From the NCBI RefSeq assembly GCF_003977665.1, contig NZ_RYYV01000001.1, positions 62,001 through 126,000 of the forward strand: a stretch of 64,000 bases of DNA. Reading direction: 5' to 3'. The DNA is from Dyella choica (GTDB lineage: Bacteria > Pseudomonadota > Gammaproteobacteria > Xanthomonadales > Rhodanobacteraceae). The notes beneath the pieces are model-generated. The model was given only the letters and a program-made list of their open reading frames with translations, searched no databases and was not told where the DNA came from. The position numbers and the translations under genes were made by a program. Of the stretch, positions 27,501-63,193 are shown piece by piece. Each line of letters starts with the position of its first letter. Within the stretch, counting starts at the first letter, position 1.

Positions 27501-27584
27501 GGCGGAGTGTAGGCTGGGATGGCAATCCCAGCATCGGGATGTCGCATGCAAAGCTGGGATTATCATCCCAGCCTACACTCCGCC
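27501..27584. repeat. REP/BIME-like palindromic element (full pair)
   Basis: Perfect 20-bp outer arms (27501-27520 and 27565-27584), each arm containing GTAGGCTGGGAT or its complement. Inside, each half can fold alone as GCTGGGAT-loop-ATCCCAGC. Two REP units in inverted orientation. Confidence 0.85.
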
Positions 27585-54754: not shown

Positions 54755-54891
54755 GGCTGTTTCCTCAATAAGGTTGCGGATTGCTTCCCGCTTGACAGCC
54801 AAATAAGTTCCCATGCACGCAGTTTCAAGGCGACAAGCTGCCTGTCCCGACGGTAGCATTCCCGCCGTTGCCCCTGTTTCAGCGAGCCCCC

Positions 54892-55377
54892 ATGACCATT
54901 CAGATCGGACAGTCTCTGCCTGACTTCGAGATCGCCGTCATCGACGACGGCGCCGACATCCAGCGCACCAGCACCGCGCAGCTTTTCGCCGGCCGTAACG
55001 CCGTGCTGTTCGCTGTACCCGGCGCATTTACCCCCACCTGTTCAGAGCGCCATCTGCCGGGTTACGTCAAGCACTATGGCGACTTCAAGGCGCGTGGCGT
55101 CGACGTGTACTGCATGGCGGTGAACGACGCCTACGTGATGAAGGCCTGGGCTCTGTCGCAAAGCGTACCTGCCGGCCTCAAGCTGCTGGCGGACGGAAAT
55201 GGCAGCTTCGCGCGCGCGCTGGGCCTGGAGATGGACGGCAGTGCCTACGGCATGGGCACGCGCTCACGCCGCTTTGCGCTGTATGCGGAAAACGGCGTGG
55301 TGAAATTGCTCAACATCGAAAGTCCGGGCGAGCTACGCGTAACGACAGCCGAAGCGATGCTGTCAGCCATCCCTTAA
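54892..55377 (+). CDS. Peroxiredoxin (Prx5-like redoxin)
   Basis: A 161-residue thiol peroxidase: peroxidatic Cys50 in PGAFTPTCSERHLPGY, a further Cys74, and the Prx5 segments SRRFALYAENGVV and AEAMLSAI. Members reduce organic and hydrogen peroxides with glutathione or glutaredoxin. ATG 54892 follows a short spacer from hsp20. Its stop is 6 bp from the end of the convergent unknown gene. Confidence 0.93.
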   Translation: MTIQIGQSLPDFEIAVIDDGADIQRTSTAQLFAGRNAVLFAVPGAFTPTCSERHLPGYVKHYGDFKARGVDVYCMAVNDAYVMKAWALSQSVPAGLKLLADGNGSFARALGLEMDGSAYGMGTRSRRFALYAENGVVKLLNIESPGELRVTTAEAMLSAIP

Positions 55378-55383
55378 GGCACG

Positions 55384-56220
55384 CTACTGAAACACGGCTA
55401 CCTGTCCGTAGTCATTACGGCAGAAAGCAGGAATACATCCGTTCACTAAGGTGGGATAGAAGCCCGCGACAGAGTCCGACCAACAGTTCACGGCCATCTG
55501 CAGGTAGCCCGAAGCACCTGGGGCGACGGGATCAGACCTGAATGCTACACACTTATTCATTACGGTAAGTCGTCCGGTCGCCATTCCGGATTGGGTCGAG
55601 CCGTATTGAACAGTCCCATGTACAGCAAAATTTGTATTAACCACGACAGACGTACTGGGTGCGACTGGATTGACGTAATCGGATGAGGCTGGTGCGGCTG
55701 AACTCGAAGGTTCGCTACCACTATTCTCCATCGTAGTGTCCTTGAGCACCCCGCCCTCAATTAAGCCGGCTTTTGGAAGGTACTTCGATGCCTTGGAGTT
55801 GGGGGATGGCCCTCTGCATGCCACTCCGTCCAAAGTACCGGGCTCGATAATCAGGCCGTCACCATCATTAGTGATATCGACACCGCCTAACTTCTGACAA
55901 AGTTTCTGCCGGTAGAGATCCGCCTCTTCCGGCTGCCTGCCGGGAACGATACGAAAATTACCGTCCCGAGTGCGCTCCAAGACTTGGCCTATGACAACTT
56001 GCTTGCCAGATTCGTCTAGGCTGACAACTTTTACCGATCGGTAAATCAGGGTTCTGCCATCGGGCTCCAGGCTTTCATGGTAATCAACGATGGCGTCCGG
56101 ACTGAGCGAACCGAACGCTGACAGTGTGGGCGCCGTCTTTTGCCCCTCGGCCATGCATGCCAGTGGTGTGGCCCATGCAAACACCAGGCCCGGCAGAATG
56201 ATCTTCGCTAGATTTTTCAT
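55384..56220 (-). CDS. Exported Cys-rich protein, family member A (unknown function)
   Basis: 278 residues from ATG 56220 (GGAGGG upstream). Signal peptide ends around PLACMA-EG. N-terminal domain (about 40-140): EPDGRTLIYRSVKV, SGKQVVIGQVLERTRDGNFRIVPGR, with Cys108 and Cys135; then a Ser/Ala/Pro-rich linker (about 165-205); then a C-terminal domain (about 205-278) with Cys224, 246, 262 and 267, spaced C-x21-C-x15-C-x4-C, implying disulphides in the periplasm or outside. Member B next door is about three quarters identical by eye, and member C shares the layout. Not recognised. Confidence 0.85.
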   Translation of the reverse strand: MKNLAKIILPGLVFAWATPLACMAEGQKTAPTLSAFGSLSPDAIVDYHESLEPDGRTLIYRSVKVVSLDESGKQVVIGQVLERTRDGNFRIVPGRQPEEADLYRQKLCQKLGGVDITNDGDGLIIEPGTLDGVACRGPSPNSKASKYLPKAGLIEGGVLKDTTMENSGSEPSSSAAPASSDYVNPVAPSTSVVVNTNFAVHGTVQYGSTQSGMATGRLTVMNKCVAFRSDPVAPGASGYLQMAVNCWSDSVAGFYPTLVNGCIPAFCRNDYGQVAVFQ

Positions 56221-56385
56221 TACTAGTGCCCTCCGTGAGTCTTGCCATAACGCCCGCAAAACGGCACAAGCCGAAGGTCAGTTATCGATCACGGCCTTAA
56301 GCACGATTCTGCGGTCGTCGTGGGAAGCTAACGTTGCCCTCGCAATGCCGTATAGGGGCATGCATCGCTTCTCCCTATCGGGAAA

Positions 56386-56419
56386 TGCACACACTTTGTG
56401 TAGGCGAGCGGATTAGGAC
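56386..56419 (-). promoter_or_regulatory. Conserved 34-bp leader element of gene A
   Basis: Aligns without gaps to 57575-57608 and 58706-58739. Inner dyad ACAC...GTGT, outer common block GAGCG...TTAGGAC (plus-strand reading). Located about 165-200 bp upstream of the gene A start. Confidence 0.6.
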
Positions 56420-56460
56420 GCTCTGATCCATTCCACGTCTTCGTCAAGACAATGACGTCC

Positions 56461-56533
56461 GTAGGCTGGGATATCAATCCCAGCATCGCGATGTGGCATG
56501 CGAGGCAATGCTGGGATTGTCATCCCAGCCCAC
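56461..56533. repeat. REP/BIME-like element between genes A and B
   Basis: GTAGGCTGGGAT...ATCCCAGCC(C)AC with an inner GCATCG/AATGC region. The preceding 15 bp (CTGATCCATTCCACG, 56423-56437) are identical to those before the element at 27501, so the copies share flanking sequence. Confidence 0.85.
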
Positions 56534-56548
56534 GCGCGGTGCCGCTTG

Positions 56549-56572
56549 CCTGCGGGTTCACTCGCCCGCAGG
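56549..56572. other. Hairpin linked to the REP element
   Basis: CCTGCGGG/CCCGCAGG stem with 8-nt loop. The second half (CTCGCCCGCAGGT) recurs at the gyrA stop codon (58918-58928). Confidence 0.6.
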
Positions 56573-56591
56573 TGATGCTCACAGCCATTCC

Positions 56592-57428
56592 TTAGCGATC
56601 GCGACGACTGAATACAGCTATCTGTCCGTAGTCGTTACGACAGAAAGCTGGAATGCACCCGTTCACGACGGTCGGGTAGAAGCCTGCGACAGACCCGGAC
56701 CAACAGTTGACGGCCATCTCCAATACGCCGGTTTGGCCTGGAACGACGGCATCGGATTGGAAGGCTATACATCTATTCATTACCGTAAGCCGCCCGGTCG
56801 CCATGCCAGCTTTGGTCGAGCCGTAAAAAGCTCTCCCGTACACAGTAAAATTCTGATTGGTTATCGTTGACGTGCTAGGCGCAGCTGGGTTGACGTAATC
56901 GGATGTGGCTGGTGCAGCTGGGTTCGAAAATTCGCCACTTTTCTCCGTTCCTGACTCCTTGAGCACTCCACCTTCAATGGAGCCGGCTCTTGGAAGGTAC
57001 TTGGATGCCTTGGAGTTGGGGGACGGTCCTTTGCAGCCAACGCCATTCAAAGTGCCTGGGCCGATAATGAGGCCGCCATTATCGTTGCTGACGTCGATAC
57101 CGCCCAACTTCTGGCAAAGTTTCTGTCGGTAGAGATCCGCTTCTTCCGGTTGCCTACCAGGGACGATACGAAAATTACCGTCCTGGGTGCGCTCCAAGAC
57201 CTGGCCAATGACAACTTGCTTACCGGGTTCGTCCAGGCTGTCAACTTTTACCGATCGGTAAATCAGCGTTCTGCCATCGGGTTCCAGGCTTTCGTGGTAG
57301 TCAACGATCGCGTCCGGATTGAGCGCGCCCAGCGCTTGCGGTCGGGGTGCTGCATTTTGCCCCTCGGCCATGCATGCCAGCGGGATGAACGCCAGACCAG
57401 GCAAGATGATACTCGCGTACGTTTTCAT
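56592..57428 (-). CDS. Exported Cys-rich protein, family member B (unknown function)
   Basis: 278 residues, tandem paralogue of A: the same EPDGRTLIYRSVKV opening, NSKASKYLP block, linker and C-terminal NRCIAF...VNCWSGS...GCIPAFC cysteines. Signal peptide shorter by three residues. It ends with extra charged residues SRRDR. The ribosome site is GGAGG. Each copy has its own leader, so they are probably separate transcription units. Confidence 0.85.
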   Translation of the reverse strand: MKTYASIILPGLAFIPLACMAEGQNAAPRPQALGALNPDAIVDYHESLEPDGRTLIYRSVKVDSLDEPGKQVVIGQVLERTQDGNFRIVPGRQPEEADLYRQKLCQKLGGIDVSNDNGGLIIGPGTLNGVGCKGPSPNSKASKYLPRAGSIEGGVLKESGTEKSGEFSNPAAPATSDYVNPAAPSTSTITNQNFTVYGRAFYGSTKAGMATGRLTVMNRCIAFQSDAVVPGQTGVLEMAVNCWSGSVAGFYPTVVNGCIPAFCRNDYGQIAVFSRRDR

Positions 57429-57574
57429 CGCTTAGCCTCCGTAAGTATCTCTACAACGGCTGCAAAGCAGCGGACCGAAGGTCGGCTAGCTGTGATTTCG
57501 CGGTCGTTATAGGAGGCTAGCGTTGCCCAATCGATGCGACATATGGGCATACACCTCGCCCGCATAGCGGGGAA

Positions 57575-57608
57575 TGCTTACACGATGCGTAAGTGAGCAG
57601 CTTAGGAC
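57575..57608 (-). promoter_or_regulatory. Conserved 34-bp leader element of gene B
   Basis: CTTACAC-gat-GCGTAAG inner dyad (one mismatch) followed by TTAGGAC at the same 27-bp offset as in A and C. About 150-180 bp before the gene B start. Confidence 0.6.
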
Positions 57609-57684
57609 GCAGTGGCTTAGCCCATCTACGCGCTAATGCGAGTGTGCACGCCTGCAGCTTGCACCTATGGCGTCGGCATAGGGG

Positions 57685-57711
57685 TGGGCTGGGATTGCGA
57701 TCCCAGCCTAC
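57685..57711. repeat. Solo REP hairpin
   Basis: GCTGGGATTGCGATCCCAGC hairpin with flanking GTAGG-like ends. It is the single-unit form of the pairs elsewhere. Confidence 0.75.
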
Positions 57712-57731
57712 GTGCGCCACTTTGCGTCCTA

Positions 57732-58508
57732 TCAAATCACTGTTACCTCCCCTCGATCCGCGGTGCAGACACCTTGCAGGCAACTGGTGGTTGAGGTCAT
57801 GATGGTGCCAGGGCTGCTCGCATAGCACGCAATAATGAAATTGCTCGTTCCGCGTGAATTCGCATTGACCCAATCTTGCTGCGATATTCCACAACCATTG
57901 CCGATTTGCATCCTCGATGACAAGTAGCCCGCGACATTGGTGGTGTATTCCGTGTACCCCTGGTACACCACGTTTTGCCGGGCAGGAACGACAAAGTTTT
58001 TCGGCGCATATGCCTTAAGAATGATTAGATTGCCCGGAGCGTGAAAATCGTCCGCCTGCTTGATCGCGCCGGCACCGGTCGCTGGCTTTCTATTGGGCTC
58101 TTGCTGATCGGACTCGTCTTTGGTCCGTTCCTGCCACACACCATTGGCCATGACGCCAATCTTTGGCGTTACGGAAGAAGAACTCATGCATGAGGCGCCG
58201 AAGAGCGTGTTTTTCTCAAGAACGCGTTGACTGGCAAACGAGGCTACCCCTCCAACACGCTGGCAGAACGCTTGATCGAACTTCAACGTATCGGCGGACT
58301 GCAGCGCGGGAACATACGTAAACGTCCCGTCCTGATTCGGAATGAGCACTTGTCGAACAAGCGTCTGCTTTCCATCGGGATCAGGTAGGTAGACCATACG
58401 CTCAATTAAAGTCTCCCCTTGTGGGGAACGTATAGTCTTTTGACTGACCACCTGGGCGCTCGCCAAGGCAGGCGCTATGACCAACAGGCCAAGCATGAGG
58501 GATTTCAT
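57732..58508 (-). CDS. Exported Cys-rich protein, family member C (diverged)
   Basis: 258 residues, signal peptide ending ALASA-QV. Clearly related to A and B though much diverged: PQGETLIERMVYLPDPDGKQTLV... against their GRTLIYRSVKV...GKQVVIGQVL pattern, then DGTFTYVP, FCQRVGGV, and six Cys (82, 107, 206, 228, 243, 248) with the same spacing as A (C-x21-C-x14-C-x4-C at the end). First of the three on this strand, directly downstream of gyrA. The best single piece of evidence that this is one family. Confidence 0.8.
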   Translation of the reverse strand: MKSLMLGLLVIAPALASAQVVSQKTIRSPQGETLIERMVYLPDPDGKQTLVRQVLIPNQDGTFTYVPALQSADTLKFDQAFCQRVGGVASFASQRVLEKNTLFGASCMSSSSVTPKIGVMANGVWQERTKDESDQQEPNRKPATGAGAIKQADDFHAPGNLIILKAYAPKNFVVPARQNVVYQGYTEYTTNVAGYLSSRMQIGNGCGISQQDWVNANSRGTSNFIIACYASSPGTIMTSTTSCLQGVCTADRGEVTVI

Positions 58509-58913
58509 AGGCTGCTCCTGTTCTCAATCATTCATGGGATTGACACCGCGAACGAAACTTGGCGCATGCCAGACCGAAGATCGGTTAGCGACCACGAGCG
58601 GAAAACGATAAGTTATTTTTTGCGCCACATTGCGATCGCGCTGAAAAGCTAAGCCTCCCTATCGGCCCTGCATATCAGCGTACACCGCCTCTTCATCTAG
58701 GAAAGTGCTTACGCTGTGCGTAAGCGAGCGACTTAGGACTATCTATTTCTCATCCGAGACGCGCCTGAAGTTATGCGTTTGAGTTGAACGTATACGGATG
58801 GCGTACCTAAATGAGGTGATGGTCAAGGCGCTCGTTGGCTGGTATGAAAATCCCGGTCCAGAAAACCGCCGGAAAGCTGGAATTTGCATCCCAGCCTACG
58901 CCGATCTGCGGGC
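58509..58913 (-). other. Spacer between gyrA and member C (405 bp)
   Basis: Holds the leader of gene C with the conserved element (58706-58739) and the CCGAAGATCGG block near 58573-58585, then a degenerate REP half (58875-58899) and the gyrA hairpin. No gene seen. Confidence 0.6.
58706..58739 (-). promoter_or_regulatory. Conserved 34-bp leader element of gene C
   Basis: Perfect 8-bp dyad GCTTACGC-tgt-GCGTAAGC (58707-58725) then GCGAGCGACTTAGGAC. It is the most symmetrical of the three copies; about 200-230 bp before the gene C start. Confidence 0.65.
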
Positions 58914-58927
58914 TTACTCGCCCGCAG
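58875..58927. repeat. Degenerate REP half and hairpin spanning the gyrA stop codon
   Basis: AGCTGGAAT...ATCCCAGCCTAC (58875-58899) is a worn REP unit. Then CTGCGGGC/GCCCGCAG (58906-58913, 58920-58927) folds with the gyrA stop in its loop. Confidence 0.6.
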
Positions 58928-61523
58928 GTTCCCCACCTTCTTGCGTACCATTCGGCTCTAGCGGCGCCCCTTCCAGGACGTCAGCCTCGTCACCATTGCT
59001 CTCATCTGCGTCCACACGCACTACGCTGACCAGCGACTCCTCGGCCGGCAGACGGATCAGCGTGACGCCCTGCGTGTTGCGGCCCAGCTGCGAAATTTCC
59101 ATCGCACGGGTGCGCACCAGGGTGCCCTGGTTGGAAATCAGGATCAGTTCGTGCGTGTCGCTGATCTGCGTGGCGGCGACCAGGGCGCCATTGCGTTCGG
59201 AGCATTGGATGCCGATTACGCCTTGCGTACCACGGCCCTTCTTCGGGAACTCGTCGAGCACCGTGCGCTTGCCGTAACCACGCTCGGTGGCGGTAAGAAT
59301 GTCGCCTTCCTGAGCGACCACCAGCGATACGAGCTTGGCCTCGTCAGTGAGCTTCATGCCGCGTACGCCGGTGGCAGTACGGCCCATCGGGCGCACTTCG
59401 CTTTCATCGAAACGCACGACCTTGCCGTTCGATGCGAACAGCAACACATCGCTATTGCCATCGGTAAGCATCACGCCGACCAACGCATCGCCCTCTTCCA
59501 GGTTGATGGCGATCTTGCCCCTTTGCAGCTGGTATTCGAATTCGGTCAGCGGCGTCTTCTTCACCGTGCCTTCGGAGGTGGCAAAGAATACATAGCGGTC
59601 GGCGCTGTACTCGTGGACCGGCAACACCGCCTGCACCTTCTCGCCCTGGGCCAGCGGCAGCAGATTCACCATCGGCTTGCCGCGCGCATTCGGGCCGGCA
59701 TCCGGCATCTGGTAGACCTTCAGCCAGTACACACGGCCAGTGCTGGTGAAAGTAAGCAGCGTATCGTGCGTGTTCACCACCCACAGCTGCTCGACGAAAT
59801 CTTCTTCCTTCAAGGCCGACGCGGAACGGCCCTTGCCGCCGCGACGCTGCGCGCGATAAATGCTGATCGGCTGGCGCTTCACGTAACCGGCATGCGACAG
59901 CGTGACCACCACGTCTTCCGGCGCAATCAGGTCGAGCACGTTGAGATCTTCCTGCGAAGGCTGGATCTCGGTGCGGCGCGCGTCGCCGAATTCGGCCTTG
60001 ATCACTTCGAGTTCATCGCGGATCACGGCGAGCAGGCGTGCCGGATCTTCCAGGATCAGGATCAGCGCGCGGATAGTTTCCAGGATCTCGCGATACTCGT
60101 CGGAAAGTTTTTCCTGTTCCAGGCCGGTAAGGCGATGCAGACGCATGGCGAGGATTTCCTGCGCCTGCGTTTCGGAAAGCTGATAACCGTCGGCCTTCAA
60201 GCCCGCGCGCGGATCGAGGTCCTCCGGCCGCGAGGCTTCCGCACCGGCAGCGGCCAGCAGCGAAGCGACCATGCCCGGCTGCCACTTGCGCACCAGCATG
60301 CGCTCCTTCGCTTCCTGCGGCGAAGCGGAGGTCTTGATCAGCTCGATCATCTCGTCGATGTTGGCGAGCGCGACGGTCAGGCCTTCCAGCAGATGCGCGC
60401 GCGCGCGCGCCTTGCGCAATTCGAAAATCGTGCGCCGTGTAACCACTTCGCGGCGATGACGAATGAACGCCTCGAGGATTTCCTTGAGGTTGAGGGTGCG
60501 CGGCTGGCCATCGACCAGCGCCACCATGTTGATGCCGAAGGTCACCTGCAGCTGCGTCTGCTGGAACAGGTTGTTGAGCACCACGTCGGCCATCGCATCG
60601 CGACGGATCTCGATGACGATGCGCATGCCGTCCTTGTCGGACTCGTCGCGCAGCTCCGAGATGCCCTCGACGCGCTTTTCCTTCACCAGCTCGGCGATCT
60701 TCTCGATCAGCCGCGCCTTGTTCACCTGGTACGGCAGCTCGTGGACGAGGATCGTTTCGCGGCCGTTGGATTCGGTTTCGATCTCGGTCCGCGCACGCAC
60801 CAGGATGCGCCCGCGACCGGTGCGGTAAGCCTCGACGATGCCGGCAGCACCGTTGATGATGCCGGCGGTCGGAAAATCCGGGCCAGGGACGTGCTGCATC
60901 AGCTCGTCGACACCGAGCGACGGATCATCGATCAGTGCGATCGTCGCGGAGATCACCTCAGTGAGGTTGTGCGGCGGCACGTTGGTGGCCATGCCCACGG
61001 CGATACCCGCCGAGCCATTCACCAGCAGGTTCGGCACGCGCGTGGGCAGTACCAGAGGCTCCTGCTCGCTTTCATCGTAGTTGGGGCCGAAGTCGACCGT
61101 TTCCTTGTCAATATCCGCGAGCAGTTCGTGCGTGAGGCGCGCCATGCGCACTTCGGTGTAACGCATCGCCGCCGCATTGTCGCCGTCGACCGAACCGAAG
61201 TTGCCTTGGCCGTCCACCAGCATGTAGCGCAGCGAGAACGGCTGCGCCATGCGCACGATCGCGTCGTAAACGGAGGCATCGCCGTGCGGATGGTATTTAC
61301 CGATTACGTCACCGACGACGCGCGCGGATTTCTTGTAAGCCTTGTTCCAGGCATTGCCAAGTTCGTTCATGGCGAACAACACGCGGCGGTGCACGGGCTT
61401 CAAGCCATCGCGGACATCCGGTAGGGCGCGTCCCACGATCACGCTCATGGCGTAATCGAGGTAGCTCTGGCGCATTTCGTCTTCGATATTGACGCGGATG
61501 ACTTCTTTGGCGAGATCTGCCAT
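58914..61523 (-). CDS. gyrA: DNA gyrase subunit A
   Basis: Cuts and rejoins DNA in the gyrase heterotetramer to introduce negative supercoils. 869 residues from ATG 61523: winged-helix/tower core with catalytic Tyr122 in [10 protein letters not shown], then the beta-pinwheel C-terminal domain with the GyrA box in [10 protein letters not shown]. The quinolone pocket reads [10 protein letters not shown]: position 83 is Ala, with Ser at 84 and Asp at 87. The C-terminal tail is acidic and ends in a hairpin. The upstream 139 bp hold GGGAAGC before the ATG. Confidence 0.98.
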
Positions 61524-61662
61524 CAATCGGCTTCCCTGGTAGCAAATAAGAGCCCCGTGACGGGCGCGCCGGGCGCCCATCCAAGAGGGTCAAGTGTTAG
61601 CTTTGGAATTATACCACAACGGCACTCGAAAAGGCCGGAATTTCATCTTTTGAATCAATGAG

Positions 61663-63129: not shown

Positions 63130-63193
63130 GTAGGCTGGGATGACAATCCCAGCTTCGTGCCTGGGGGATGCTGGGATTGTCATCCCAGCCTAC
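63130..63193. repeat. REP/BIME-like element between mtnA and phaC
   Basis: GTAGGCTGGGAT...ATCCCAGCCTAC, with inner GACAATCCCAGC and GCTGGGATTGTC halves. Ends 4 bp before the phaC stop codon. Confidence 0.85.

What the first reader, a model, noticed from the sequence alone, without database searches (positions are those of the whole stretch)
55384..58508. Three tandem exported Cys-rich paralogues of unknown function
Members A (55384-56220), B (56592-57428) and C (57732-58508) all have a signal peptide, an N-terminal domain with two Cys and a C-terminal domain with four Cys. Cys spacings in A are 27, 22, 16 and 5 residues, and in C 25, 22, 15 and 5, despite little identity otherwise; A and B are near three quarters identical by eye. 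The linker in A and B is Ser/Pro/Ala-rich. I recognise no family. Conserved spacing over strong divergence suggests disulphide-constrained folds kept by selection, and repeated duplication suggests an extracellular or periplasmic role with diversifying partners.
Basis: partly seen in the sequence, partly recalled or inferred. Interest (0 to 1): 0.78.

Follow-up and report, generated by a model that had tools for sequence, protein, structure and literature searches.

The report
Lineage-restricted exported six-cysteine protein family
Three neighbouring genes in a bacterium make exported proteins of one undescribed family that has kept the same six cysteines while nearly everything else changed; the family looks real and selected, but what it binds is still unknown.

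Summary
A, B and C are intact exported proteins of one family, with the Cys spacings as stated and homology detectable even between A and C (27%, E 5e-23). No match above cut-off in Pfam or NCBIfam, none in PADLOC, PDB sequences, phages or plasmids. In the genomes sampled the family appeared only within the window's own order. In 38 chosen two-domain members four Cys are kept in 38 of 38 and two in 37 of 38. Selection is purifying (omega 0.10-0.21). The domains are modular: an N-domain-only form is also under purifying selection. In another genus, members often lie just downstream of a small lipoprotein gene (37 of 67).

C nevertheless carries an upstream region homologous to those of A and B. 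No positive selection was seen.

Most likely function: a non-enzymatic binding or inhibitor protein of the envelope, inferred, not shown. Interest is moderate: a clean new family with a testable partner, but no mechanism.

The parts
55384..56220 (-). gene A: 278 aa, signal peptide, N-domain (C108, C135), Ser/Pro/Ala linker, C-domain (C224, C246, C262, C267)
56592..57428 (-). gene B: 278 aa, paralogue of A (77%); 92% identical to the single gene at this place in Dyella flagellata
57732..58508 (-). gene C: 258 aa, same six-Cys plan, older subfamily grouped with a protein of genus g21 (G021)
56230..56421 (-). region upstream of A homologous to those upstream of B and C
   Evidence: local alignment score A/B 121, A/C 68; 200 Markov resamples at most 38 and 35
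57436..57610 (-). region upstream of B homologous to those upstream of A and C
   Evidence: B/C score 61 over 90 aligned bases; resamples at most 35
58555..58738 (-). region upstream of C homologous to those upstream of A and B
57577..57593 (.). dyad CTTACGC-N3-GCGTAAG (1 mismatch) upstream of B; candidate operator, function unknown
58708..58724 (.). perfect dyad CTTACGC-N3-GCGTAAG upstream of C; candidate operator, function unknown
56460..56534 (.). pair of inverted GTAG-type REP-like palindromes between A and B
   Evidence: class named from PMC3733652 (passages)
57684..57716 (.). single REP-like palindrome between B and C

Best explanation
A, B and C are exported, disulphide-stabilised, two-domain proteins without catalytic residues that work by binding something in the cell envelope or outside it. 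The N-domain (strand meander, then a helix carrying the first Cys, closed by the second) is the functional core and can act alone. The C-domain is a beta-sandwich tied by C3-C4 and C5-C6, joined by a flexible linker. The most likely role is a binding or inhibitor protein, of the kind that shields envelope components from a hostile enzyme or toxin, which would explain copies that come and go between close species, tandem paralogues and decayed copies. Shown: family, six-Cys plan, modularity, purifying selection, patchy distribution. Inferred: export site, disulphide pairing, domain folds, binding role. Speculative: the inhibitor or immunity role.
For: Six Cys conserved in 37-38 of 38 chosen members; the other 37 are 17-92% identical to B, most of them 20-30%. 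No conserved His/Ser/Glu set: invariant columns of 38 rows are Q, C, C, P, C, C; nearly invariant R, D, G, Q, L, A, G, G, C, C. N-only forms carry just the two N-terminal Cys and are under purifying selection: four different sequences from five loci, omega 0.15-0.25. The one member that lost C258 and C263 lost both and kept the other four, which fits a C5-C6 pair, though that member (L111) has two Cys elsewhere. C-domain model: six strands, pLDDT 72.9, pTM 0.62. Patchy: 2 of the 16 own-genus genomes listed, 7 of 233 in the family, 60 of 91 in g38 with 1-4 match places each. Small lipoprotein gene within 300 bp of a member in 41 of the 67 g38 genomes that have it, in 37 on the same strand with the member downstream.
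Against: No effector, toxin or hydrolase next to A-C: the neighbours are gyrA and a peroxiredoxin-like gene. No structural match is significant (none with E <= 0.001; best 0.46, 0.027 and 0.0098). No positive selection, which arms-race proteins often show. The lipoprotein link may be positional: it comes mostly from one conserved chromosomal place in g38, the co-occurrence (56/4/11/20) is not corrected for ancestry, 26 of 67 lipoprotein genes have no member within 300 bp, and presence of the lipoprotein in Dyella was not tested.
Confidence: 0.38

Rival explanations
1. Accessory proteins of transition-metal homeostasis in the periplasm, binding or buffering Co/Ni/Zn.
For: In g38 members lie in or beside an island with a DmeF-type CDF exporter, a ZigA-like COG0523 GTPase, MerC and an RcnR/FrmR-type repressor; the COG0523 cluster occurs in 16 and the CDF cluster in 14 of 37 loci (single-linkage clusters that include some wrong-frame ORFs).
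Against: The loci with these clusters are of one genus and largely one chromosomal place. Members elsewhere in g38 (beside rimO-like, MFS, coaD/rsmD-like genes by my reading) lack them, and I recognised no metal gene beside f1 members, window included (by eye, not every neighbour was scanned). Six Cys at fixed spacing and no conserved His look like disulphides, not a metal site.
Confidence: 0.15
2. Orphan periplasmic immunity proteins of the Xanthomonadales bacteria-killing type IV secretion system (X-Tfi) or a similar contact-killing system.
For: The X-T4SS occurs in Dyella and Stenotrophomonas (PMC6536674, passages); members are exported, small, paralogous, patchy; one g11 locus (L080) has a transglycosylase-like gene and two tandem exported Cys proteins just downstream.
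Against: X-Tfi genes are usually upstream of and probably co-transcribed with an effector; A-C have none beside them. The SLT-like neighbour in L080 showed no XVIPCD match in Pfam at E<=0.01 (that Pfam holds such a model is recalled). Periplasmic X-Tfis are described as lipoproteins; A-C show no canonical lipobox by my reading.
Confidence: 0.15
3. Lineage-specific surface, pilus or matrix component whose Ig-like C-domain mediates assembly or adhesion.
For: Six-strand C-domain model; weak Foldseek similarity to sandwich domains of GH2, GH3, GH29 enzymes and to a DUF1425 protein, E 0.027-0.14 among the 50 listed; Ser/Pro linker.
Against: I recognised no usher, chaperone, pilin or secretion gene among the neighbours (by eye); N-only forms without the sandwich are retained.
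Confidence: 0.17
4. Chance open frames or decaying remnants without function.
For: Broken or truncated members exist (G089, G200, G343, G925).
Against: dN/dS 0.10-0.21 for A, B and C45-copy pairs at dS 0.5-0.75; Cys kept in 38 members; homology across two families.
Confidence: 0.03

Closest known systems
X-Tfi periplasmic immunity proteins (Xanthomonadales T4SS)
   Same: same order, exported, small, paralogous, no enzyme residues
   Different: no effector gene beside A-C, no lipobox by eye; their sequences were not compared here; resemblance only
DUF1425 (PDB 3o0l) and sandwich domains of GH2/GH3/GH29 enzymes
   Same: C-domain model resembles them in strand layout (TM by query length about 0.35-0.50, Foldseek prob up to 1.00)
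   Different: E 0.027-0.14 only, 9-18% identity, no disulphide comparison made; A-C lack any glycosidase domain
CVNH (cyanovirin-type lectin domain, PF08881)
   Same: Cys and end-of-domain pattern looked alike to me
   Different: profile comparison gave probability 0.1% (only two CVNH rows); no Pfam CVNH match in 38 members
GTAG-type REP palindromes
   Same: GTAG tag and palindromic stem beside the genes
   Different: ordinary genome repeats; their role in copying these genes is a guess

Membership tests
Any Pfam / NCBIfam family | match above curated cut-off | tested here: not met
   A, B, C: Pfam none at E<=10, NCBIfam only two chance hits far below cut-off; 38 members on Pfam at E<=10: 10 families, best E 0.014, none in more than 3 members
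X-Tfi immunity protein | gene paired with an X-Tfe effector (XVIPCD) | tested here: not met
   For A-C: neighbours gyrA and peroxiredoxin-like. One SLT-like neighbour in L080 without XVIPCD match at E<=0.01. Neighbours of the C45 copy and most other loci were not scanned
X-Tfi immunity protein | binds and inhibits a cognate effector | not testable with these tools
   needs biochemistry
CVNH lectin | profile similarity over the tandem 50-residue repeat | tested here: not met
   hhalign probability 0.1%, weak test with two CVNH rows; Pfam none
Anti-phage defence protein (PADLOC) | match to a PADLOC model | tested here: not met
   0 families in 38 members at E<=1
Phage-borne protein | homologue in phage or viral contigs | tested here: not met
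   phages tblastn with B none, three viral-contig scans none, PHROGs 1 weak hit E 0.22 in 1 of 5 proteins
Protein with solved relative | PDB sequence or fold match | tested here: not met
   PDB profile search with 16 rows: 0 at E<=10; Foldseek none at E<=0.001 for both models, of which the first is a poor model

The most novel reading that the evidence does not exclude
The family's N-domain and the small lipoprotein found beside it in g38 form an undescribed envelope pair: the lipoprotein anchors or presents the soluble disulphide protein, which binds foreign enzymes or toxins; the C-domain sandwich is an optional second binding module, and arrays such as A-B-C under one shared regulatory cassette are repertoires with different targets.
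Probability: 0.12. Interest if true: 0.68.

Novelty: new variant of a known kind. Interest (0 to 1): 0.4.

Why it matters
It defines an unannotated family (absent from the libraries searched) with a clear framework, a minimal functional unit and a candidate partner gene, so that its role can be tested. If it is an inhibitor or immunity repertoire it would add a new class to bacterial competition; if not, it still gives a common frame to unnamed proteins scattered over one order. Without a mechanism the present value is moderate.

Tried and rejected
CVNH lectin idea: rejected by hhalign (only two CVNH rows, so a weak test) and by Pfam. Riboswitch or structured RNA in the region: nothing in Rfam but two weak miRNA-family hits far below gathering scores. 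Regulon from the dyad: only 3 sites in the own genome, 2 of them here, fewer than the 5 of the backwards control pattern, so no wider regulon was found; in the window the looser pattern gave 6 matches against 0.76 expected. The upstream region of B as DNA query found only itself at a convincing E-value (next best 0.09), so that search did not see the A and C homology that one search shows. Sigma-70 promoters: 0 found, 2.5 expected. Weak NCBIfam hits (UvrC-like E 0.22, PurR-like E 0.086) taken as chance. PG_binding_5 hits (3 of 38, best E 0.065) taken as chance. N-domain/C-domain homology (internal duplication): no support. Recent origin of C from A/B: rejected by the tree, which warns of long branches. 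Literature: the searches gave no paper that I could tie to this family; I saw listings with starts of abstracts, and passages only of PMC6536674 and PMC3733652.

Full report
What is there. The three ORFs are intact, on the minus strand, at the stated coordinates. A and B are 77% identical; A and C 27% over most of their length, E 5e-23. They sit between gyrA (58914-61580, minus; NCBIfam above cut-off) and a peroxiredoxin-like gene (54868-55377, plus; below the equivalog cut-offs). A fourth member lies elsewhere in the genome, G000:C45:5572-6396.

Organism and locus. The genome is of the genus of Dyella flagellata: a database scan returned D. flagellata NBRC 111981 (L016), whose contig length equals that of G104:C3, and G104 is listed as of the own genus. 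In that species the same slot between gyrA and the peroxiredoxin-like gene holds a single member, 92% identical to B, and a second member lies on another contig.

Distribution. Matches: 5 of 197 genomes of the family with A alone; 7 of 233 with an 8-row profile, 2 of the 16 own-genus genomes listed; 18 of 398 in the order; 2 of 369 in the class and 4 of 398 in the phylum, these all in the own order; 60 of 91 genomes of genus g38 in a second family, with 1 match place in 43, 2 in 13, 3 in 2, 4 in 2 genomes (a match place is not always a whole gene). The larger searches score only the 6-10 best candidates of a first look per genome and sample the group, so absences are not proof. No match to B in plasmids or phages, none in three viral-contig scans.

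Family features. Of the loci found I aligned 38 two-domain members (9 of family f1, 29 of g38); N-only, truncated and broken members and some further g38 members were left out. Four Cys are kept in 38 of 38 and two in 37 of 38; the exception, L111, lost the last two together, though it has six Cys in all. The stretch between C132 and C220, linker included, varies from 53 to 98 residues; the other gaps vary little (22-26; 21 in 36 of 38, with one of 12 and one of 23; 14-15; 4). No His, Ser or Glu column is nearly invariant, which speaks against an enzyme.

Selection. Nei-Gojobori pairs: A/B dS 0.70, dN 0.15; B/D. flagellata orthologue 0.51, 0.05; C45 copy/its D. flagellata counterpart 0.62, 0.12. 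All are purifying; A/C and B/C45 copy are near saturation (dS 2.3 and 3.0). In A/B the C-domain is freer (73% identity) than the N-domain (86%). This does not support diversifying selection.

Modularity. In g38 an N-domain-only form ends at 109 or 128 aa. Four different sequences from five loci give omega 0.15-0.25, so it is kept for use. Its two Cys are those of the N-domain, which supports a C1-C2 bond inside that domain.

History. The tree puts A, B, the C45 copy and the two D. flagellata proteins in one clade (100/100) and C with the G021 protein (97/100), both on long branches. So A and B are a young pair, and C is an older subfamily. Against this stands the upstream DNA: 90 to 154 aligned bases before C match those before B and A (scores 61 and 68, resamples at most 35), and also those before the D. 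flagellata gene (55, at most 32), while the C45 copy, its counterpart and G021 score no higher with these than the resamples do (resamples were first-order Markov, 200 each). Either a C-type gene was placed under the A/B cassette, or the cassette was copied by gene conversion, or C changed fast and was drawn wrongly to G021. The cassettes of B and C hold a dyad found only once more in the genome at that stringency.

Neighbours. Across 37 loci (crude gene calls, some in wrong frames) no neighbour is shared by all. In g38 many members lie in an island with a CDF exporter (DmeF, above cut-off), a ZigA-like GTPase (just below), MerC and an RcnR/FrmR-like repressor, and beside a small lipoprotein gene. 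That gene occurs in 67 of 91 genomes; co-occurrence with the family is 56 both, 4 family only, 11 lipoprotein only, 20 neither. Of 67, 41 have a member within 300 bp (37 same strand with the member downstream, 2 same strand upstream, 2 opposite), 11 at 300-6000 bp, 4 far off or on another contig, 11 none. N-only and two-domain members were not counted apart. Ancestry was not corrected for, and most cases are one chromosomal place.

Structure. Full-length A: pLDDT 47 with four rows, ten-residue means 56-76 over residues 41-120. C-domain of B: pLDDT 72.9, pTM 0.62, six strands. Foldseek gave no match with E <= 0.001 for either in PDB or for the C-domain among viral proteins (best 0.0098, a Sel1-like phage protein, TM 0.50); the best for the C-domain in PDB are sandwich domains of glycosidases and DUF1425 at E 0.027-0.14. 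The second aligner was not available.

Judgement. Family, export, Cys framework, modularity and purifying selection are well supported. Function is not. I commit to a non-enzymatic binding or inhibitor protein of the envelope (0.38), with adhesion, metal and immunity readings as rivals.

Noticed in passing
L088:7048-7464 and 66 further g38 genomes: Small lipoprotein of about 138 aa without Pfam or NCBIfam match, within 300 bp of a family member in 41 of 67 genomes, gaps clustering near 73 and 131 bp.
   Followed up: partly
L080:7707-9558 (genome G199): SLT-like protein (just under the Pfam cut-off) with a Pro-rich start and no signal peptide seen, followed by two tandem exported Cys-containing paralogues without Pfam match: looks like an effector with immunity genes.
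   Followed up: partly
window 27513-27572 and 63134-63189: Further pairs of the GTAG-type REP-like palindrome found between A and B.
   Followed up: no
L012 (G089) and L020 (G200): Remnants of a family member: one keeps only the C-domain, the other only the N-domain, amid the same neighbours as the whole gene in G178.
   Followed up: partly
L111:1510-2190 (genome G253): Very divergent member that lost the last two Cys but has six Cys in all: a possible rewired disulphide.
   Followed up: no
L094 (genome G908, 19 kb): Four family members of different subgroups interspersed with metal-homeostasis genes.
   Followed up: partly
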